DNA of 64,000 nt from Haloarcula salinisoli (GTDB lineage: Archaea > Halobacteriota > Halobacteria > Halobacteriales > Haloarculaceae), in NCBI RefSeq assembly GCF_019599405.1, contig NZ_RKLQ01000001.1, positions 620,001 to 684,000 on the forward strand. The letters are read 5' to 3'. The notes under the pieces are model-generated. The model saw only the letters and a list, made by a program, of their open reading frames with translations, had not been told where the DNA came from and made no database searches. This document shows, in pieces, positions 5,190-24,209 of this stretch. Each line of letters opens with the position of its first letter. Position 1 is the stretch's first letter. A program made the translations under genes and the position numbers.

Positions 5190-7151
5190 CTACTCCTCGG
5201 CGTAGATAGCGTCGACGGCGTCCTGGAACTCCTGGTGGATGTTGCGGCGCTTCTTCTTCATCGACGGCGTGAGGAGGTCGTTGCGCGCTGTCCACTCCTC
5301 GGGGACCAGCTCGAAGGCCTTGATGCGCTCGGTGCGCTCCAGTTCTGCGTTGGCCTCGTCGACGGCGGCCTGAACCCAGCCGCGAACGGCCTCGTGGTCA
5401 CACTGGGCGGCCGGGTCGTCGGGCAGGTCGATACCCTCCCTGGCCGCGAGCCGTTCCATCTCCTCGAAGTCGGGAACGATGAGCGCCCCGACGAACTTCT
5501 CGTCGTCGCCGACGACCATTATCTGGTCGACTCGGTCGACCGTCGCGAACAGGTCCTCGATGGGCTGTGGGGCGACGTTCTTCCCCGTCGAGAGCACCAG
5601 GAGCTGTTTGATTCGGTCGTGATACACCAGAAAGCCGTCGTCGGTCTGCTCGACCACGTCGCCGGTCCGGAACCAGCGCTGCCCCTCAAGTTCGGTGAAT
5701 CCACGGGTCGTCTCGCCCGGGTTCGCCCAGTATCCCGCGGTGACGTTGGGGCCGGCGACGAGCAGCTCGCCTAGCCGACCGCTGGCGTCGTCGAACTCCC
5801 TCTCGTCGACGACGTGTTCGTCGATGTGGATGTCGATTTCGGTTACCGGGTAGCCGAGCGTCCCCGGCCGGAGGTCCTCCGGCGGATTGATGGATATGAC
5901 CGGTGCCGTCTCGGTGAGCCCGTACCCCTCGACGATGTCGATACCCATCCCGATGAACGTCTCACAGAGCTCTTTAGAGAGGCTCCCGCCGCCGCTGACC
6001 ATGAACTCTACTTCACCGCCGACTCCCTCGCGGACTGTGCTGTAGACGAGACGGTCCGCGAGTCGGTGCTGGAGCGTCAACAGTGACCCCGGGTCCTCCG
6101 TGCGGGCGTGCTCTCTGGCGACGCCCAGCGCCCAGTCGAAGATGCGCTCTTTGACCGGCGAGGCGCTGGCCTGCTCGCGCATCCGCCGGAAGATGCGCTC
6201 GTAGACGCGAGGGACGCTCGCACCGAAGTGCGGGCGAACCTGTTCCAGGTCGTCGGCCAGCGTGTCCGGGCTCTCGGCGTAGCAGACGGTCACACCGGAG
6301 GCATACATGAAGAAGTGGCCCGCCAGCCGTTCGAAGACGTGGGCCAGCGGGAGGAAGGCGATAGAGCGCTTCCCGGCCGCGACCGTCGGGAGCCCAGGGG
6401 CCTTGTCCGGACGGGGCCCAAGCCGCCGCCGCGTCTGGTTGACGTTCGTCCGGAAGTTCCTGTGCGTGAGCTCTACCCCCTTCGGTTGCCCGGTGGTCCC
6501 GGAGGTATAGATGATGCTCGCGAGGTCGTCCAGTGACCGGTCGGCGAGCCAGGTCTCGTACTCGCTGGACTCGAAGGCGGCTTCGCCCCGGTCGTAGACG
6601 TCGGAAAGCGTCAGCACGTCCGCCCGGTCGGGCGCGCAGTCGTCCATCGTGACGACGGCCTCGAGGTCGAGGTCGTCCTCCACCGCTAGCACCCGCTCTA
6701 ACTGCTCGTCGGTGCCCACGACCGCCAGCTCGGCGTCCGGGTCGTCGAGGAGATAGCGGACCTGTTTCTCCGAGGAGTCGGTGTACACCGTGGTCACGAC
6801 CCCGCCGGCCGACAGCACGGCGAAATCGGTTAGCGCCCATTCCATCCGCGTCGACGCGAAGATGCCCACGCGGGTGTCGCTACTCACGCCGAGTTCGCGG
6901 AAGCCGGCGGCGAGATATCGAACGAGCTCGCCCATCCGCTCGTAGCTGAGCCGTCCGTAGGCACCGTCGGGCGGTCTCGGGAGTATCTCGCCCGTCAGCG
7001 AGCGGTCGTAGACGCCGCCCTTGTACTGCTGGGCGTCCCGCTCGGCGTTGCGGGTCGCGGTCGCCGCGAACAGTTCACCGAGTGTGTCCAACTCCGTGAC
7101 GTCGTCGCTGTAGGCGGCCTCCGCCTCGAACCAGCTCGGTGGGGCACCCAT
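5190..7151 (-). CDS. Long-chain fatty-acid--CoA ligase (AMP-dependent synthetase)
   Basis: A 653-residue adenylate-forming enzyme of the FadD/ACSL branch that would activate a carboxylic acid to its acyl-CoA. The ATP-binding P-loop YTSGTTGQPKG lies near residues 215-225. GYGLTET follows the acceptor loop, then RTGD, and a C-terminal subdomain that ends with the catalytic Lys region (LLTPSMKKKRR). ATG 7151 is chosen over the in-frame GTG at 7166 because a weak TATA-like stretch lies about 28 nt before 7151. Chain-length preference cannot be read from sequence. Confidence 0.9.
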   Translation of the reverse strand: MGAPPSWFEAEAAYSDDVTELDTLGELFAATATRNAERDAQQYKGGVYDRSLTGEILPRPPDGAYGRLSYERMGELVRYLAAGFRELGVSSDTRVGIFASTRMEWALTDFAVLSAGGVVTTVYTDSSEKQVRYLLDDPDAELAVVGTDEQLERVLAVEDDLDLEAVVTMDDCAPDRADVLTLSDVYDRGEAAFESSEYETWLADRSLDDLASIIYTSGTTGQPKGVELTHRNFRTNVNQTRRRLGPRPDKAPGLPTVAAGKRSIAFLPLAHVFERLAGHFFMYASGVTVCYAESPDTLADDLEQVRPHFGASVPRVYERIFRRMREQASASPVKERIFDWALGVAREHARTEDPGSLLTLQHRLADRLVYSTVREGVGGEVEFMVSGGGSLSKELCETFIGMGIDIVEGYGLTETAPVISINPPEDLRPGTLGYPVTEIDIHIDEHVVDEREFDDASGRLGELLVAGPNVTAGYWANPGETTRGFTELEGQRWFRTGDVVEQTDDGFLVYHDRIKQLLVLSTGKNVAPQPIEDLFATVDRVDQIMVVGDDEKFVGALIVPDFEEMERLAAREGIDLPDDPAAQCDHEAVRGWVQAAVDEANAELERTERIKAFELVPEEWTARNDLLTPSMKKKRRNIHQEFQDAVDAIYAEE

Positions 7152-9656: not shown

Positions 9657-10736
9657 ATGGACGAGACGGGGTCTCCCGAGAACTTCACCCGGATGGGCAC
9701 GCTCGGTATCGAGGAGGAGTGTTACGTCGTCGACGAGCACGGCCGGCCCACCTCGGGCACGGACGAACTCGTCTACGAGGGCGAGCCGCCGGAGATACTC
9801 GACGGCCGGCTGGACCACGAGCTGTTCAAGAGCGTCATCGAGACGCAGACGCCGCTTATCGAGGCACCCGGCGACGCTCGCGAACAGCTACTGTCGGTGC
9901 GCGAGGCACTCGTCGAGTACGCCGCAAGCGAGGGGTTTGGCATCGCCGCGGCGGGGCTTCACCCGCTGGCAAAGTGGCGCGAGCTCGAACACGCCGAGAA
10001 GCCCCGGTATCGGGCGCAACTGGACCGAATCCAGTACCCACAGCACCGCAACACCACCGCGGGGCTGCACGTGCACGTCGGTGTGGACGACCCGGACAAG
10101 GCGGTGTGGGTGGCCAACGAGCTACGCTGGCACGTCCCGGTGATGCTGGCGCTGTCGGCGAACTCGCCGTACTGGAACGGCTTCGACACCGGGCTGCAGT
10201 CCGCCCGGGCGAAGATTTTCGAAGCGTTACCCAACACCGGCATCCCGACGGCGTTCGAGGACTACGCGGCCTTCGAACGGTTCGAGCGCCGGATGGTCGA
10301 AAACGGAAGCATCGACGACCGCGGAGAGCTGTGGTTCGACGTGCGCCCGCACTCGGGCCACGGAACCGTCGAGGTGCGGGCGCCGGACGGCCAGGCCGAC
10401 CCCGACCGCGTGCTCGCCTTCGTCGAATACGTCCACGCGCTCGTAGAGGACCTCGCGGCCCGCTACGAGGACGGTGAGTCGGGGACCGACCTCCGGCGGG
10501 AACTGCTCGACGAGAACAAGTGGCGCGCGATTCGGAACGGCCAGTCGGCCTCGTTCCTGTCGCGCGACGGCGAGGCGACCCTGTCGCTCGAGGATATCGT
10601 CGAAGCCGACTGTGACCGCCTGGATATCGACGGGATTCGGACGCTACTTGCGGCCGAGAGCGGCGCAGAACGGCAACGGCGGCTCCGCGGCGAGGGCGTG
10701 CAATCACTCGCCGCGGCGCTCGAATTGCAGTACTGA
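9657..10736 (+). CDS. gshA: Glutamate--cysteine ligase, haloarchaeal GCS2 type
   Basis: A 359-residue carboxylate-amine ligase of the GCS2 family that makes gamma-glutamylcysteine, the main low-molecular-weight thiol of haloarchaea. Visible family blocks are [13 protein letters not shown] near the N-terminus, the metal- and ATP-binding segment [18 protein letters not shown], and [19 protein letters not shown] 9657 is supported by a TATA-like GGCTTTAG about 28 nt upstream. No glutathione synthetase gene is adjacent, as expected when gamma-glutamylcysteine itself is the end product. Confidence 0.92.
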
Positions 10737-11155
10737 AACGGATCCGCCCCGATGGCGGCGACGAAAGCTCTGGCTGCCACTACCTCCCCTCCCGCTAATC
10801 GGTGGTCCCCTTCTGTGTCCCCTTCGGGAATCGTCTCGGACCGACTGCGGCGCCGCCCCCAGACGGCGACCGCATCCAGCTTCGGATATCGTGTGTAGGC
10901 GCCCTCACAGCACGCCAAGCGACACTCATTCGTAGAGGATACTACAGTAAAATACCAGAGGGTCGCTCTCACGGGCGATAGTGGAGCCGGTTTTTGCCCG
11001 CCATTTATATACCACATTTTTAAATCTTCACAACAGTCGTTAATTTATATCTCTCTGTAAAGAACGATGGCGCCGCTTGGGGACGCGGCGTCCTGCGGTC
11101 GGTCCGAGCCAAGGTTTTTATCCGCCAATCACTTTCGTCCCCACAGAGACAACAT
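10737..11155. other. Long intergenic region, no gene seen
   Basis: This 419-nt stretch holds no convincing gene. Its right half is unusually AT-rich (11000-11060) with several TATA-like words on both strands, including TTTAAAAATG on the minus strand and TAATTTATATC at 11041-11051. A further TATA-like GTTTTTATCC (11114-11123) stands about 33-42 nt before the regulator at 11156. Confidence 0.6.
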
Positions 11156-19115: not shown

Positions 19116-19237
19116 ACCCTTACCCCGGGAGCACAGACAGTAAAACTCGTGGTCTCCCGCCGGCTCACGGTAGCGGCCCTGCGACCGACACGCCACGCCC
19201 CAGCAACCCTATTGGGGATGCTCCCGATAGCCAGCCC

Positions 19238-19588
19238 ATGGCGAAACACGCATTCCTGCTGCTGTCGTCGCCGGAGAGCCCCGGAAAGCTGGCGAACCCG
19301 CTCACCTACGCCGCGCAGTTACACGACGCGGGCCACGAGGTGGCGGTCTACTTCGACGGCGACGCGACCACCTTCTTCGATGGGGTCGAAGACCACGCGC
19401 CGCCAGCGGTCGAGGCCTACGAGGGAGCCAGAGAGCGCGGGCTCGTCGCCGGCGTCTGTGACCACTGTGCGAACGCGAAAGGCGTCGCCGACGCCGTCGA
19501 GGCCGAAGGGTTCGAGATAGACGGGAGCGAGCACTCGCCCGATACCGCCGCCCTCGTCGAGGACGGCTTCGAACTGCACATGGTCTGA
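19238..19588 (+). CDS. DsrE family protein
   Basis: A 116-residue DsrE/DsrF-like protein, a small alpha/beta fold linked to sulfur transfer. Visible parts are KHAFLLLSSPESPGKLANPLTYAAQLHDAGHEVAVYFDGDA and a C-terminal half with GLVAGVCDHCANAKGV, giving two Cys residues in CDHC that could carry persulfide. No dsr or tus genes are nearby, so a role in sulfur relay to tRNA or general thiol chemistry is open. Confidence 0.87.
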   Translation: MAKHAFLLLSSPESPGKLANPLTYAAQLHDAGHEVAVYFDGDATTFFDGVEDHAPPAVEAYEGARERGLVAGVCDHCANAKGVADAVEAEGFEIDGSEHSPDTAALVEDGFELHMV

Positions 19589-19640
19589 GAGAGACCTCGC
19601 GCGAGAGGAACGGTCGCTGTATTGGTAATGACCGAAACAG

Positions 19641-19656
19641 CCCTTACGATTAAGGG
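19641..19656. promoter_or_regulatory. Inverted repeat in the promoter of the HTH_10 regulator
   Basis: CCCTTA and TAAGGG form perfect 6-bp arms around CGAT, centred about 32 nt before ATG 19681. That is where the TATA box should be, so binding here could block or assist TBP. It may be an operator, perhaps autoregulatory. Confidence 0.45.
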
Positions 19657-19680
19657 ATTTTGACACATCTGGTAGGAAAG

Positions 19681-20427
19681 ATGCAAGAGTTCGTGTTCAC
19701 CGTCACGTACGACCGGGGGAGCGACCCGATAGCCGACGTGTTGATAGAGTATCCCGACGTCGTGATGACGTTGCTGGACTGTAGCGTGACCGAGGACAGC
19801 GTCTGGTTTCTCAACCGTATCACCGGTCCGGCGGCGGCGCTGGACCGGCTGGACGATATCTTCCTCGATTCGACACACTGCAACGAGTGTCTCAGCACGG
19901 AACTGTGCGATACAGAGTGGACCTACGAACTGCTATCGTGCGGCGAGAACAGCCGGACCGTCTACTCCTACGGGACCGAGGGCGATGACTGTCACTCGAT
20001 ACCCGCCATCGGCGGGGCCCACCTCGGCGACGGCCTCATCCACGACGCCGAGCGCCGCGGCGACCAGTACCGGTGGCGCATTCTCGTTCCGGACAACGCG
20101 GAACTGGGCGACCTGTACGAGACGATACGTAGCGGCCTCCGAGACGGGCTCAGTCTTCGCCTCGACCACCTGAAAGAGCCGACCCGGTGGGGGGACACCG
20201 TCGTCTCGCTGGCCGACGTTCCCTACGAGCAGCGGACGACGCTCAGGGCGGCCGTCGAAGAGGGCTACTACGAGACGCCGCGGGAGATAACCACACAGGA
20301 ACTCGCCGACGAACTGGACATCCCACAGTCGACGGTCCAGTACCGGCTCTCCCGTGCCGAAGCGTGGCTGGCGACGGAGTTCGCCTCGGAAGTGTCCTGG
20401 GGCCAGGTTGACGACACCGGTGGGTAA
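19681..20427 (+). CDS. HTH_10 (Bat-like) transcriptional regulator
   Basis: A 248-residue regulator of the bacterio-opsin activator-like family. The C-terminal HTH_10 domain (about residues 185-240) contains LRAAVEEGYYETPREITTQELADELDIPQSTVQYRLSRAE. The N-terminal half is the usual sensor region. It carries four cysteines (67, 70, 76, 87; first two as CNEC) that could bind metal or sense redox. It lies 0.5 kb upstream of the azole-peptide cluster on the same strand, a candidate regulator of it, though a DUF1059 gene and a separate promoter lie between. Confidence 0.85.
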   Translation: MQEFVFTVTYDRGSDPIADVLIEYPDVVMTLLDCSVTEDSVWFLNRITGPAAALDRLDDIFLDSTHCNECLSTELCDTEWTYELLSCGENSRTVYSYGTEGDDCHSIPAIGGAHLGDGLIHDAERRGDQYRWRILVPDNAELGDLYETIRSGLRDGLSLRLDHLKEPTRWGDTVVSLADVPYEQRTTLRAAVEEGYYETPREITTQELADELDIPQSTVQYRLSRAEAWLATEFASEVSWGQVDDTGG

Positions 20428-20543
20428 CAGCCCCGTTTCTAGTGATTGCGGGCAGGACAGCGACGCAGTTCAGCGCCGACGGTGGCGAGTTGGTTCTAAC
20501 CAGACGAACTACCAATGGGGCCCGCCCGAGACGAACAGTCGCA

Positions 20544-20714
20544 ATGGCACAAGAACTCAGCTGTGTCGTCGATGGCTGTGAGGCAACGATTACCGAGGAA
20601 ACAGCGGAAGAGATACTCGAAGTAGCCGAGGCACACGCCGCCGAGGAACATCCCGACCTCGAACTGGATGAAGCGACCGTCGAGATGCTCAAAGACAACA
20701 TCGAGGAAGTCTAA
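20544..20714 (+). CDS. DUF1059 small protein
   Basis: A 56-residue acidic protein of the DUF1059 family: LSCVVDGCEATITEETAEEILEVAEAHAAEEHPD. The conserved core is two cysteines followed by a helix and a His-containing HAAEEH segment. Members are common in haloarchaea and have no established function. It lies between the HTH_10 regulator and the azole-peptide precursor; I see no feature tying it to either. Confidence 0.82.
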   Translation: MAQELSCVVDGCEATITEETAEEILEVAEAHAAEEHPDLELDEATVEMLKDNIEEV

Positions 20715-20902
20715 CCGCATTCGCGGTAGAGAGCGCATCGTTATTGTTCGGTGGCGACGGTCCCTCACGACCGCCCGCCGATGACCCTTCTGGTGTTCGG
20801 GAGCCACCACCGCCGGCCGACGCGGAAACAGGCCAGCGGGAACCTCGCGTATCCTCTCGCAATCGACGGCACGGGGAGGCTGTTGGTCGCTACCAAGTCC
20901 AG

Positions 20903-20910
20903 TTTTATAT
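20903..20910 (+). promoter_or_regulatory. TATA box of the azole-peptide operon
   Basis: TTTTATAT stands 27-35 nt before ATG 20938, ideal for a leaderless transcript starting at the precursor gene. It shows that the precursor is the first gene of its own transcription unit. Confidence 0.65.
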
Positions 20911-20937
20911 GCTACCGACGGCGCAAATCAGGGTGTG

Positions 20938-21162
20938 ATGGGAGAACACACTGACATCGACCTCGAAATCACCGACGGCCTCCCGGACGAGCTCCAGTCG
21001 GACGGGGAGGAGTCCGAGGATTCGGCGGCGTCCGATGCCGAGAACGACACCCCGACCAACGTGGGCGGCGGGTCCTACGGGGGCGGGGGCGGTGGGTCCT
21101 GTGGTGGGGGCGGGAGCGGTGGCTGCAGCGCCGCTGCGCCCGGACACGGGACCGACGAGTGA
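20938..21162 (+). CDS. Putative LAP/TOMM precursor peptide with microcin B17-like core
   Basis: A 74-residue peptide in two parts. Residues 1-41 are an acidic leader (MGEHTDIDLEITDGLPDELQ then Asp/Ser-rich). Residues 42-74 are a core of Gly, Ser and Cys: VGGGSYGGGGGGSCGGGGSG, then GCS and AAAPGHGTDE. It contains Gly-Ser-Cys (53-55) and Gly-Cys-Ser (62-64), the two tripeptides that microcin B17 synthase turns into oxazole-thiazole and thiazole-oxazole pairs. The next genes encode the cognate cyclodehydratase and dehydrogenase, which makes the role as substrate very likely. Unlike microcin B17, the core also has a Tyr and an acidic C-terminal end. No leader cleavage site is evident. Confidence 0.85.
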   Translation: MGEHTDIDLEITDGLPDELQSDGEESEDSAASDAENDTPTNVGGGSYGGGGGGSCGGGGSGGCSAAAPGHGTDE

Positions 21163-21166
21163 ACCA

Positions 21167-22045
21167 ATGAACGCGACCGAGATAACCACCGAGTCGAAGC
21201 TGAAAGTGCCGAATCTCACAGCGATGGCCGAGTACGAGGACGACATCGTCGTCTCGGGCATCACCGGAACCAAAACACTCTCCGGTGGCGCGGCACGGTT
21301 GAGCAGTGAGATACTAGATGCGAGTGACGGGGAAACGCCGCTCCGAGAGGTCGTCCCGGCAATCGGTGACGCGGCGACGGCAGTTGCCATCGCAGAGGCC
21401 CTGTACGAGGATGGCATCCTCTATCCGGTCGAACTGCTCGACCCGTTCGACGTCGACGAGGGCCACCGGAGTCTGCTGGAATCGCTCCTCCTCGGACTCG
21501 ATGTGACACAGCGCCCGGCGTTCGCCAGCCGGGTCCAGGAGACCACCATCGGGCTGTATGGTGACCCGACGGTTGCCGAGGCGCTCCGCGAACCGCTCGA
21601 GGCTATCGGCTGTTCCCTCGACGACCCTGACCCGGACGTGATGGTGTTCGTCGAGACTGAATCGACCCGGGACCGTCGCGAGGTGAATCGAGACTGGCTG
21701 GACTCAGAGGCGACCCTCGTTCGCGCCCGCCTGCGCGGCTCGACCGTCGAAATCGGCCCCCTCCTGACGCCGTCGAGTGACGCCTGCTTAGAGTGTCTGA
21801 CGACCCGGGCGGAACTGAACGACGCCCACCAGCGGCTCGACTACCGAAGTATCGTCTCGGCGTCGACGTACGAGACTGCGTTCTGTGGGCACGTGCTGAC
21901 GAGGCTGGCACTGCAGGCGGGGCTCGACCGCATCCCGCCGGAACTGGTCGGCGAGATACGTCGGTTCGATTGCCGGACGTTCGAGCACACCAGTGCTCGC
22001 CTGCTCGGGGTCCCAGGGTGTGAGGCGTGTGATGCCAACGACTGA
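21167..22045 (+). CDS. LAP cyclodehydratase partner (C protein, RRE + ThiF-like)
   Basis: A 292-residue protein of the leader-binding/partner type that delivers the precursor to YcaO. Residues about 15-90 form a winged-helix RiPP recognition element (SGGAARLSSEILDASDGETPLREVVP, then LYEDGILYPVE). The rest resembles a reduced ThiF/E1-like domain. Two CxxC pairs, CLEC (207-210) and CEAC (285-288), make the structural zinc site of these proteins. ATG 21167 follows the precursor stop by 4 nt. Its last 14 nt overlap the YcaO start. It lacks the ATP-binding motif of active E1 enzymes, as expected. Confidence 0.85.
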   Translation: MNATEITTESKLKVPNLTAMAEYEDDIVVSGITGTKTLSGGAARLSSEILDASDGETPLREVVPAIGDAATAVAIAEALYEDGILYPVELLDPFDVDEGHRSLLESLLLGLDVTQRPAFASRVQETTIGLYGDPTVAEALREPLEAIGCSLDDPDPDVMVFVETESTRDRREVNRDWLDSEATLVRARLRGSTVEIGPLLTPSSDACLECLTTRAELNDAHQRLDYRSIVSASTYETAFCGHVLTRLALQAGLDRIPPELVGEIRRFDCRTFEHTSARLLGVPGCEACDAND

Positions 22046-23324
22046 CCAGACCCTGCAGGCGGGGCAGGCCCTCACTGACGAGGCGATAGGCGTTTTCAGC
22101 GGCATCCGTACCGGTTCGTCGCCGCCCGACGAACCACGGGTTCACACTGCCGCAGTGAACCGGGCACACCCGACATCGCTGACCGACGGCGTCACGGTGC
22201 CACCGAGTGAAGGCGGGTGTGCGCTGGACCCGGACGCCGCACTCGCCTCGGCCATCGGTGAGGGCGTCGAGCGATACTGTGCCGCTATCTACCGGAACAG
22301 CGACCTCCGCGAATCGACCTACGGCGCCCTCAATAGTGCCATCGACCCATCGTCCGTGGTCAATTTCGCACCGGCACAGCGCGACGCCGGGACGGTTCCG
22401 TCGCCACTCTATCGGGACGGGGACGAGATACGGTGGGTCGAGGGCGAACGCCTGTCCGATGGCACCGCGGTCTACGTGCCGGCACAGCTGGTCTACCTCT
22501 CGTATGATATGCGCGACGTGCCGTTTATCCGAGCACCGATAAGTACCGGTCTGGCCGCGGGTCTGGACCGCGAAGCCGCTGTTCGGCGCGGACTGCTGGA
22601 GATAGTCGAGCGGGACGCGTTCATGATTCACTATCTCACCAGGAGCCCGTTGCCGACGCTCCGAGTCGAGAACAGGGACGGCCCGGTCGGGCGGCTCCTC
22701 GACCGGATTGGGCGGGCGGGGCTCACGTGGCATCTACTCGATGCGCGGACGGACATCGGAATTCCGGTCGTAATAGCAGTACTGGTCGACCCACACGGGA
22801 CACCAGCTGTCACCGTCGCCGCATCGGCACGACCCGACGCGCGGGCTGCGGTGCAGGCTGCCCTCGAAGAGGCGATACAGACGCGACTCTATCAGCAACA
22901 TCTCGGTGCGACGAGCGCGCCAGAGGGCGCTCCCGAGGGAGCAGATATCGACCGCGAGAGCCGGCTGCGTGCCTGGAGCGAGCCGGGGTCGGCAGCGGAC
23001 CTCGACTTCTGGACAGAGACGGATGCGACGATGACGCTCGCCGAACTGGACGCCGAGACGGCAGCTCTCGATGCCGACGGGGTGCGGGCGACCGTCGGGC
23101 AGAAGTGGGATGTGTCCGTCGTCGACGTGACGACGCGGGACGTGGCCGAGACCGGCTTCGAGGTCGTCAGGGTCGTCGCACCGGCCGCCCACCCCCTCTA
23201 TCTCAGGGAGACGCGCAGGTACTGGGAGATGAGCCGTCTCGCCACCGTACCGGTAGCGTGTGGCTACCGCGAGGAGCCGCCGACACAGTCTGACCTGACT
23301 GGACAGCCACATCCGTTCCCATGA
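22032..23324 (+). CDS. YcaO-domain azoline cyclodehydratase (D protein)
   Basis: A 430-residue YcaO enzyme, which uses ATP to cyclise Ser and Cys side chains on the precursor to oxazolines and thiazolines. The acidic ATP/Mg-binding segments are visible: SAIGEGVERY (Glu77, Glu80), LLEIVERDAF (Glu190, Glu193) and AALEEAIQTR (Glu279, Glu280). The protein ends in PHPFP (426-430), the PxPxP C-terminus that marks azoline-forming YcaO proteins and distinguishes them from thioamide-forming or ribosome-modifying ones. It overlaps the C-protein gene by 14 nt and the dehydrogenase gene by 4 nt. Confidence 0.95.
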   Translation: MPTTDQTLQAGQALTDEAIGVFSGIRTGSSPPDEPRVHTAAVNRAHPTSLTDGVTVPPSEGGCALDPDAALASAIGEGVERYCAAIYRNSDLRESTYGALNSAIDPSSVVNFAPAQRDAGTVPSPLYRDGDEIRWVEGERLSDGTAVYVPAQLVYLSYDMRDVPFIRAPISTGLAAGLDREAAVRRGLLEIVERDAFMIHYLTRSPLPTLRVENRDGPVGRLLDRIGRAGLTWHLLDARTDIGIPVVIAVLVDPHGTPAVTVAASARPDARAAVQAALEEAIQTRLYQQHLGATSAPEGAPEGADIDRESRLRAWSEPGSAADLDFWTETDATMTLAELDAETAALDADGVRATVGQKWDVSVVDVTTRDVAETGFEVVRVVAPAAHPLYLRETRRYWEMSRLATVPVACGYREEPPTQSDLTGQPHPFP

Positions 23325-24094
23325 GCAAGCTGACCGACACTCTGTTTCCGCTGTACCGTCTGTACCACAAGAATCAGCGTGGGCTCGTCGACGCCGACGC
23401 GGTCGACCAGTCGGCCAAGCGCGAAGAGTGGGAGACTGGCGGGTACAAGGAGTACACTCGACTGGAGTCTGTGAGCCCGCCAGCGTCGTTCGACCCCGAC
23501 GAGAGCGAGTTCCTTCGCGCGCTCCGGTCCAGGGAATCCTTCTCGGACGCGACGGGAGCCCGCCCGGTGACCCGGACGGAGCTGTTCACCGTGCTCAGCT
23601 GTGCCTACCGCATCGACCACGAGACAGCGACCCGCCCGGTCGCGTCTCCCGGCCGGCTGTATCCACTGGAAATCTATCCGCTGGTACTGGACTCGCCGGA
23701 CCTCGACACCGGGCTCTACCACTACAACCCGGCACGGAACACACTGGAGCGGCCGGCCGACCCGTCGTACATCGACGACCGATTCGGTCCTTTCGACGAG
23801 TTTCTCGCGGAGAACTGGACGCATCTGGGCCCCGACCACGAGGTCAGCGTCATGTTCTTCCTGACGGGCATTCCATCGCGTTCGACGGCGAAATACGGCG
23901 AGCGAGGCTATCTGTTCACGCTCGTCGAGGCCGGCGAAGTGATACACGCGATACAGCTCGCGGCGATGCATCTCGGCATCGGTTCGCGCCCGTACGCGGG
24001 ATTCAGGTACGATGTCGCTGACGAACTACTCGGGCTCGCGAGCGACGATAGCGAGTGGGTACTCGCGAGTCTCGCCCTGGCCGGGCCCGGCTAG
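23321..24094 (+). CDS. SagB/McbC-type azoline dehydrogenase (B protein)
   Basis: A 257-residue FMN-dependent oxidase of the nitroreductase superfamily that would oxidise azolines to aromatic azoles. FMN-binding SPGRLYPLEIY lies at 109-119. KYGERGY (191-197) supplies a Lys-Tyr pair at the place of the catalytic Lys-Tyr of McbC. LVEAGEVIHAIQLAAMHLGIG is the family core. The ATGA overlap with the YcaO stop shows coupled translation. It is the last gene of the cluster; the next gene (24210) has its own upstream spacer. Confidence 0.92.
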   Translation: MSKLTDTLFPLYRLYHKNQRGLVDADAVDQSAKREEWETGGYKEYTRLESVSPPASFDPDESEFLRALRSRESFSDATGARPVTRTELFTVLSCAYRIDHETATRPVASPGRLYPLEIYPLVLDSPDLDTGLYHYNPARNTLERPADPSYIDDRFGPFDEFLAENWTHLGPDHEVSVMFFLTGIPSRSTAKYGERGYLFTLVEAGEVIHAIQLAAMHLGIGSRPYAGFRYDVADELLGLASDDSEWVLASLALAGPG

Positions 24095-24209
24095 CCATTC
24101 CATCGGTCGACGGAGACAATCCGCGCAGGGTCACGTCACTGGACACGCCTGCGGACCTCCCGCACCGCGATAACACCGTTTTTTCACCGCCCACGCCGAG
24201 AGGAGCAGT

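What the first reader, a model, noticed from the sequence alone, without database searches (positions are those of the whole stretch)
20938..24094. Archaeal azole-peptide (LAP/TOMM) cluster in A-C-D-B order
Seen: a 74-residue Gly/Ser/Cys-rich peptide, a leader-binding protein with two CxxC pairs, a YcaO protein ending in PHPFP, and an FMN-type dehydrogenase with a Lys-Tyr pair. The three enzyme genes overlap or nearly touch, and one TATA box precedes the peptide. Known: these four parts make oxazole and thiazole rings on a precursor in bacterial LAP/TOMM systems. Inference: this haloarchaeon makes a heterocyclised peptide, perhaps a halocin-like antibiotic or a signal. I have an unverified recollection that an archaeal azole peptide has been reported; novelty would lie in this core.
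Basis: partly seen in the sequence, partly recalled or inferred. Interest (0 to 1): 0.93.

Follow-up and report, generated by a model that had tools for sequence, protein, structure and literature searches.

The report
Microcin-B17-like azole peptide genes in haloarchaea
A salt-loving archaeon carries a compact four-gene cluster, rare among its relatives, that encodes a small glycine-rich peptide beside the three kinds of maturation protein that bacteria use to build ring-bearing antibiotics such as microcin B17; it is predicted to make a ring-modified peptide, possibly an archaeal antibiotic, but the chemistry and the activity are untested.

Summary
Window 20938-24094 is a tight A-C-D-B operon: a 74-aa precursor, a leader-binding C protein (TIGR03882, just over cut-off; predicted fold matches the C domain of LynD/TruD), a YcaO cyclodehydratase (TIGR03604 SagD type, over cut-off, ends PHPFP) and a SagB dehydrogenase (over cut-off). 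A related species carries the same four genes at the same site; the closest relative has 21 bp there. Between the two species the 28-residue core is identical, with 13 synonymous and 0 amino-acid changes, while the linker before it changes almost freely: strong evidence that the core is the selected product. The core has Gly-Ser-Cys then Gly-Cys-Ser, the order of microcin B17's two fused-ring sites. A leader motif, [IL]DL[EDST]I, is shared with precursor-like peptides of some other haloarchaeal C-D-B clusters and led to one I had missed. It is not the published 'haloazolisin' type. Most likely an archaeal linear azole peptide system; product, target, export and leader protease are unknown. Archaeal TOMM clusters were predicted in 2015, so this is a new member of a known kind, unusually well supported.

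The parts
20903..20910 (+). TATA-like element TTTTATAT, about 30 nt before the precursor ATG (leaderless-type promoter, inferred)
   Evidence: read from the sequence; the G008 locus has a T/A-rich stretch at a like distance; no transcript data
20938..21162 (+). A: precursor peptide, 74 aa; acidic leader, variable linker, Gly/Ser/Cys core
   Evidence: orthologues in G008 (L046) and in a metagenome protein, P0018; core under strong purifying selection
20956..20970 (+). leader motif IDLEI (general form [IL]DL[EDST]I), proposed C-protein docking strand
   Evidence: 7 of 2286 ORFs of 30-130 aa in the window and 15 loci carry it; 6 of the 7 are Cys/Ser/Gly-rich precursor-like peptides in loci with C-D-B genes
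21064..21147 (+). core GGGSYGGGGGGSCGGGGSGGCSAAAPGH (bounds set by conservation; mature ends unknown); candidate ring sites Ser54-Cys55, Cys63-Ser64, Ser60, Ser46
   Evidence: 28 of 28 residues identical in G008 with 13 synonymous differences; P0018 keeps Cys63-Ser64 and has Ser in place of Cys55
21167..22045 (+). C: leader-peptide-binding protein (RRE plus E1-like domain, two CxxC)
22032..23324 (+). D: YcaO ATP-dependent azoline-forming cyclodehydratase, ends PHPFP
   Evidence: TIGR03604 250 bits, cut-off 219.25; E76, E79, R80, E189, E192, R193, E279 and P427 (numbered without the start Met) invariant in 25 sequences; aligns to TruD and LynD
23321..24094 (+). B: SagB-type FMN azoline dehydrogenase with Lys-Tyr motif
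   Evidence: TIGR03605 90.3 bits, cut-off 78.4; KY..RGY aligns with McbC of the microcin B17 synthetase
19164..24173 (.). 5,010-bp stretch absent from the same site in the closest relative G002 (21 bp there); holds DsrE-like, HTH_10 regulator and DUF1059 genes as well as A-C-D-B
   Evidence: Pfam
19660..20427 (+). HVO_2928_N/HTH_10 regulator in the same insert (linked to the system only by position; no counterpart aligns at the G008 site)
   Evidence: Pfam, site comparison

Best explanation
These four genes encode a glycine-rich precursor peptide, a leader-binding protein, a YcaO cyclodehydratase and a SagB-type dehydrogenase, and together they likely make a linear azol(in)e-containing peptide in this haloarchaeon. 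Inferred steps: the leader strand around IDLEI docks on the N-terminal RRE of C; D uses ATP to cyclise Ser/Cys of the core, most likely Ser54-Cys55 and Cys63-Ser64 as fused ring pairs, perhaps Ser60 and Ser46; B oxidises azolines to azoles with FMN; an unidentified protease then removes the leader. Shown here: the genes and family memberships, the fold prediction of C, the shared leader motif, co-occurrence, and selection on the core. Not shown: any ring, the mature ends, export, and the target. Working guess for function: an anti-haloarchaeal peptide, with a self-acting role as the main alternative.
For: Profile scores over curated cut-offs for C (marginal), D and B. The C model matches the C domain of LynD/TruD across its length and the E1-like part of a McbBCD chain, presumably McbB. 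Catalytic and zinc residues conserved. The same A-C-D-B order sits at the same site in G008. Core: pN 0 over 60 sites, pS 0.54; linker pN 0.48; leader pN 0.20; C pN 0.24; D pN 0.22 (B not measured). Third precursor P0018 with the same leader motif and one ring residue swapped, Cys to Ser. Leader motif shared with precursor-like peptides in loci of other haloarchaeal C-D-B clusters. Of 6 genomes tested, A is found only in the 2 with near orthologues of the enzymes.
Against: C is just over its cut-off by sequence. Among the 13 proteins scanned between 17073 and 27853 there is no transporter, protease or immunity protein; PF01523 (TldD/PmbA) finds nothing in the genome, so leader removal is unexplained. 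No expression or mass data. The cluster is rare: C is in 3 of 32 genomes of the genus, one of these of another type. P0018 is placed beside its C protein P0007 only by equal contig length (1743), not by reading the contig. The leader motif is missing from the sister-clade and B-C-D-order clusters.
Confidence: 0.87

Rival explanations
1. The modified peptide is a microcin-B17-like poison of the haloarchaeal DNA gyrase, made in Archaea by a separately evolved enzyme set.
For: The core has Gly-Ser-Cys followed by Gly-Cys-Ser after a polyglycine stretch, the order of the oxazole-thiazole (oztz39, from Gly39-Ser40-Cys41) and thiazole-oxazole (tzoz54) units of MccB17 (PMC3622597, passages). The PDB search listed MccB17 among weak Gly-rich matches (E 0.13). 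One GyrA-family gene is in the genome.
Against: That match is weaker than those to unrelated Gly-rich proteins (E 0.007-0.06). MccB17 loses activity as its C-terminal Ser-His-Ile is removed (PMC3622597) and has McbEFG for export and immunity (PMC10912980); here the tail is AAAPGHGTDE and no such genes are among those scanned nearby. Pentapeptide-repeat proteins do not track the cluster: found in 13 of 32 genus genomes, including cluster-free G002, not in G008.
Confidence: 0.12
2. The modified peptide acts inside or on its own cell (metal binding, redox buffering or signalling) and not as an antibiotic.
For: No exporter, immunity protein or protease among the 13 neighbouring proteins scanned; a DsrE-like gene and an HTH_10 regulator share the insert.
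Against: Those neighbours do not align at the G008 site, so they are not core parts. Rare, patchy presence is more usual for conflict peptides than for housekeeping functions (inference).
Confidence: 0.25
3. The YcaO modifies another target (McrA-like thioamide or ribosomal protein S12), and the Gly-rich ORF is incidental.
For: TIGR03266 matches (102 bits); Gly-rich ORFs occur by chance in GC-rich DNA.
Against: TIGR03266 is far under its cut-off of 365, RimO-type 16.6 of 700; SagD type over cut-off. Zero amino-acid against 13 synonymous changes in the core.
Confidence: 0.03
4. The operon is decaying or silent and no product is made.
For: Most relatives searched lack it; no transcript data are available.
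Against: All four frames are open; strong purifying selection on the core and intermediate constraint on C and D between species; all four genes are open frames in G008 too.
Confidence: 0.06

Closest known systems
Microcin B17 system (mcbABCDEFG) of Escherichia coli
   Same: separate genes for precursor, RRE/E1-like protein, dehydrogenase and YcaO; polyglycine core with a Gly-Ser-Cys unit, then a thiazole-oxazole (Gly-Cys-Ser) unit (PMC3622597)
   Different: gene order A-C-D-B here (mcb: precursor, McbB, McbC dehydrogenase, McbD); no McbEFG counterpart among the neighbours scanned; no PF01523 protein found in the genome; other leader and C-terminus; target unknown
Haloazolisins (Cox et al. 2015, PMC4603692)
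   Same: haloarchaeal, YcaO, predicted TOMM
   Different: those have a fused, truncated cyclodehydratase, reported in all haloarchaeal genomes and of doubted RiPP role (PMC9953058); here C and D are separate, B is present, the precursor is adjacent and the cluster is rare. The genome holds a second YcaO (open frame 603 aa) like those found in most relatives
Thermoacidophisins (Sulfolobus and some bacteria; PMC4603692)
   Same: archaeal cluster with separate C and D and a B protein
   Different: reported with ABC transporters and Tyr/Gly-rich precursors; not compared by sequence here
Haloarchaeal C-D-B clusters named, as far as seen here, only by automatic annotation (Halonotius terrestris L033; Halohasta salina P0049; plasmids of Haloplanus HW8-1 L089 and Halorubrum CBA1229 L090)
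   Same: C-D-B order and related D (45-row group in the tree); the two plasmid loci also hold peptides with the leader motif
   Different: D 27-45% identical; other precursors and cores (SPxCCSA..; SSCSPSSAPSCGGS)
Cyanobactin heterocyclases LynD/TruD
   Same: C matches their N-terminal RRE/E1-like part, D their YcaO part
   Different: theirs are one fused protein; cyanobactin cores are macrocyclised by dedicated proteases (recalled), of which none is among the neighbours scanned

Membership tests
[quoted passage not shown]
   TIGR03604 250 bits against cut-off 219.25; ends PHPFP; ATP-site Glu/Arg residues invariant (site assignment recalled)
[quoted passage not shown]
   TIGR03882 37.1 of 36.9 bits (marginal); predicted fold matches the LynD/TruD C domain over 260-267 residues
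[quoted passage not shown]
   A adjacent, conserved core with Ser and Cys
[quoted passage not shown]
   needs mass spectrometry
[quoted passage not shown]
   TIGR03605 90.3 of 78.4 bits; Lys-Tyr aligned with McbC
Haloazolisin | fused, truncated CD protein with barely recognisable C part | tested here: not met
   C and D are separate genes; D falls apart from the longer haloarchaeal YcaO rows in the tree
Microcin B17 family | Gly-Ser-Cys and Gly-Cys-Ser ring sites in a Gly-rich core | tested here: met
   residues 53-55 and 62-64 of A; MccB17 sites from PMC3622597
Microcin B17 family | McbEFG export and immunity genes in the operon | tested here: not met
   the operon ends at B; right: CYTH, AdoMet synthetase; left: DUF1059, HTH_10, DsrE-like genes
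Microcin B17 family | TldD/E leader protease in the genome | tested here: inconclusive
   PF01523 finds nothing in the genome; the Haloferax volcanii control does not ring either, so a divergent protein is not excluded
Microcin B17 family | gyrase poisoning | not testable with these tools
   GyrA-family gene present
Thiopeptide | lantibiotic-type dehydratase and cycloaddition enzymes in the cluster (definition recalled) | tested here: not met
   none among the 13 proteins scanned between 17073 and 27853; the rest of the genome was not searched for them

The most novel reading that the evidence does not exclude
An archaeal counterpart of microcin B17: a haloarchaeal azole peptide with the same pair of fused-ring sites that poisons the bacterial-type gyrase of rival haloarchaea. 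It would be one branch of a haloarchaeal family of C-D-B systems, several of which share one leader code, [IL]DL[EDST]I, with interchangeable cores.
Probability: 0.12. Interest if true: 0.88.

Novelty: new member of a known kind. Interest (0 to 1): 0.64.

Why it matters
The paper searches here showed no characterised archaeal azole peptide, and the published haloarchaeal candidate (haloazolisin) has been doubted by those who deleted its YcaO (PMC9953058). This cluster is a much cleaner test case: all four canonical parts in 3.2 kb, an adjacent precursor whose core is frozen by selection, another species with the same core, and a leader motif that points to further precursors. It makes the question 'do Archaea make azole peptides, and against whom?' directly testable in haloarchaeal laboratory hosts.

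Tried and rejected
Thioamide- or RimO-type YcaO: rejected on model scores. Membership in haloazolisin: rejected, separate C and D, rare, other branch of the tree. Homology to MccB17 by sequence: not established, Gly-rich background. Pentapeptide-repeat immunity: no link with the cluster, 13 of 32 genus genomes, not in cluster-bearing G008, present in cluster-free G002. HTH_10 regulator, DUF1059 and DsrE-like genes as core parts: set aside, they do not align at the G008 site. Viral or plasmid carriage: C gave no relative in viral contigs, no match in plasmids, and C, D and B no PHROG; D matched 205 plasmid records, all under 60% identity, among them the two haloarchaeal plasmids followed up. 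SagB alone as a marker: useless, 141 of 392 order genomes have it. Bacterial-type promoter and terminator scan: nothing found. The first ORF surveys missed a precursor for L052; the motif scan found one 6.6 kb from the genes. No precursor was found for L053. The loci other than Halonotius (L034-L038) were not examined for precursors. The precursor search gave, besides P0018, four proteins at E 0.9-8.5, taken as chance.

Literature seen: PMC4603692 passages; PMC9953058 passages and one section; PMC3622597 passages; PMC10912980 passages; PMC12144867 and PMC8600319 passages; all others search listing only. PMC8600319 reports 'thiopeptide' clusters called by antiSMASH in two Halomicroarcula genomes; whether one is of this type could not be checked.
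Full report
What is there. The window (64 kb of a 4.03-Mb genome, G000 contig C1) holds four genes in one direction: A 20938-21162, C 21167-22045, D 22032-23324, B 23321-24094. Gaps are 4 nt between A and C, overlaps 14 nt (C-D) and 4 nt (D-B). A TATA-like TTTTATAT lies about 30 nt before A. The genome is probably a Haloarcula: its genus-mate G008 has a contig of 1451016 bases, the contig length listed for Haloarcula sp. S1CR25-12 (inference).

The precursor. A has an acidic leader with IDLEI, a variable linker and the core GGGSYGGGGGGSCGGGGSGGCSAAAPGH (bounds set by conservation). In G008 the same four genes lie in the same order. Between the two species: core, 28 codons, 13 synonymous differences over 24 synonymous sites, 0 amino-acid differences over 60 sites; leader pN 0.20, linker pN 0.48, C 0.24, D 0.22, with pS 0.52-0.56 in all five; B was not measured. 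If the core drifted like D, zero changes in 60 sites would have a chance of about 3e-7 if sites were independent (my arithmetic, an over-simple model). That is a swap between two residues that YcaO enzymes both cyclise (stated in PMC9953058).

Where it sits. Both flanks align to relatives. The DNA between the flanks is 5,010 bp in the window (19164-24173) and 21 bp in the closest relative G002 (94% over the query), 175 in G025, 44 in G024, 110 in G030, 107 in G029, 178 in G014 and 1,305 in G007; none of these seven has a C match. G008 has A-C-D-B at the same place; the DsrE-like, HTH_10 and DUF1059 genes that precede A in the window do not align there, and about 1.1 kb of other DNA follows B. 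The TOMM genes differ more between window and G008 (71% identity over 20948-24040) than the flanks (79-89%), while core and order are kept; shared descent with losses, or separate arrivals at one site, both fit. C is found in 7 of 392 genomes drawn from the order (G008 is not among those listed) and in 3 of 32 of the genus, of which G016 carries another type. D finds something in 93 of 98 genomes, own included, but besides the window's own genome only G008 exceeds 60% identity; most other matches are in open frames of about 570-670 aa, the widespread haloarchaeal YcaO. The window genome has one of these too. A is found in G000 and G008 and not, beyond chance level, in G016, G002, G025 or G024.

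Kin. In a tree of 87 YcaO rows (midpoint root for drawing only; 12 forks open; a long-branch warning for P0079/P0080) the window protein groups with P0024 (100/99), in a 20-row clade (100/100), next to a 19-row clade holding Halohasta and Halonotius (100/99). G016, G387 and two plasmid clusters join further out (99/94 for 45 rows). Ten rows of mostly longer YcaOs, among them Natrinema and Salinadaptatus, are a separate 100/100 clade. The B-C-D-order loci L053 and L055-L057 fall elsewhere, among rows without source names; L054 was not in the tree. I examined 16 sequences with C-D-B or B-C-D genes: the window, L033, L046-L057, L089, L090 (in L054 and L055 no C protein was detected by the query C). 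Chosen by eye or by motif, without a control, 15 of 16 have a precursor-like ORF; L053 has none. Strength varies: in five of the sister clade (L033, L048-L051) it is a downstream peptide ending SP(V/A)CCSA..N..(L/V)TV or close to it; L055's candidate is Thr-rich and weak; L052's is 6.6 kb away.

A leader code. The motif [IL]DL[EDST]I occurs in 7 of 2286 ORFs of 30-130 aa in those 16 sequences. Six are Cys/Ser/Gly-rich precursor-like peptides: window A, two in G016, one on each plasmid (not in PLSDB's gene table, which is incomplete), and one in G387 that I had missed, with two copies of SSCGGPGCGGPSCNSD. The seventh is unrelated. G008's A carries IDLDI but fell outside the length limit. The motif was framed after seeing the window, G008, G016 and plasmid peptides, so only the G387 peptide is an independent success. 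The sister-clade and B-C-D-order peptides lack it.

How it most likely works. As in bacterial LAP systems: the leader docks on C, D cyclises Ser/Cys with ATP, B oxidises, a protease trims (all inferred from the families). The likely ring sites, Ser54-Cys55 and Cys63-Ser64, have the Gly-Ser-Cys and Gly-Cys-Ser order of microcin B17's fused rings (PMC3622597). The resemblance stops there: sequence similarity is weaker than to unrelated Gly-rich proteins, there is no McbEFG counterpart among the 13 neighbouring proteins scanned, PF01523 finds no TldD/E (the Haloferax control does not ring either), and pentapeptide proteins do not track the cluster. A GyrA-family gene is present.

What is known. 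Cox et al. 2015 (PMC4603692, passages) predicted nearly 100 haloazolisin clusters and an archaeal family in Sulfolobus. Costa et al. 2023 (PMC9953058, passages and one section) deleted the Haloferax mediterranei ycaO, saw no loss of inhibition (halos were if anything larger), and note that this gene is in all haloarchaeal genomes. A 2025 archaeal RiPP paper (PMC12144867, passages) mentions YcaO-related clusters only in general. The paper searches showed me no description of this cluster; the library lacks most subscription papers. NCBI's names already call the C proteins of Haloarcula sp. S1CR25-12 (G008) and Haloarcula onubensis a TOMM precursor leader peptide-binding protein.

Verdict. A real, intact, selected archaeal LAP/TOMM cluster of a kind known from bacteria: new member of a known kind; function untested.

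Noticed in passing
L089 9144-9272 (+) and L090 9141-9272 (+), plasmids NZ_CP098519.1 and NZ_CP054586.1: 42-43-aa precursor-like peptides (..LDLEIEEL..SSCSPSSAPSCGGS), absent from the PLSDB gene table, downstream of C-D-B genes and of a gene annotated as an aminoglycoside phosphotransferase family protein
   Followed up: partly
L052 65-298 (+), genome G387: precursor-like peptide with IDLEI leader and two copies of SSCGGPGCGGPSCNSD, 6.6 kb from its C-D-B genes
   Followed up: partly
L047, genome G016, 6221-6454 (-) and 10621-10836 (-): two precursor-like peptides on either side of C-D-B plus a methyltransferase-domain gene; one core is CGGGGGCGGGGCSCG
   Followed up: partly
L033, L048, L049, L050, L051: sister clade whose small downstream peptide ends in a conserved SP(V/A)CCSA..N..(L/V)TV-like tail
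   Followed up: partly
L053-L057: B-C-D-order haloarchaeal clusters, some beside ORFs that look by eye like ABC transporters (no search made), with short peptides such as ..GYCCCCTEEC.. and ..GGSCCSCCGC..
   Followed up: no
window 19164-20900: DsrE-like, HVO_2928/HTH_10 and DUF1059 genes lie in the same insert as the cluster but do not align at the G008 site
   Followed up: partly
order-wide: SagB-type dehydrogenases are common in haloarchaea (141 of 392 genomes, 133 over cut-off), far beyond the C proteins of this kind (7 of 392); their role is unclear
   Followed up: no
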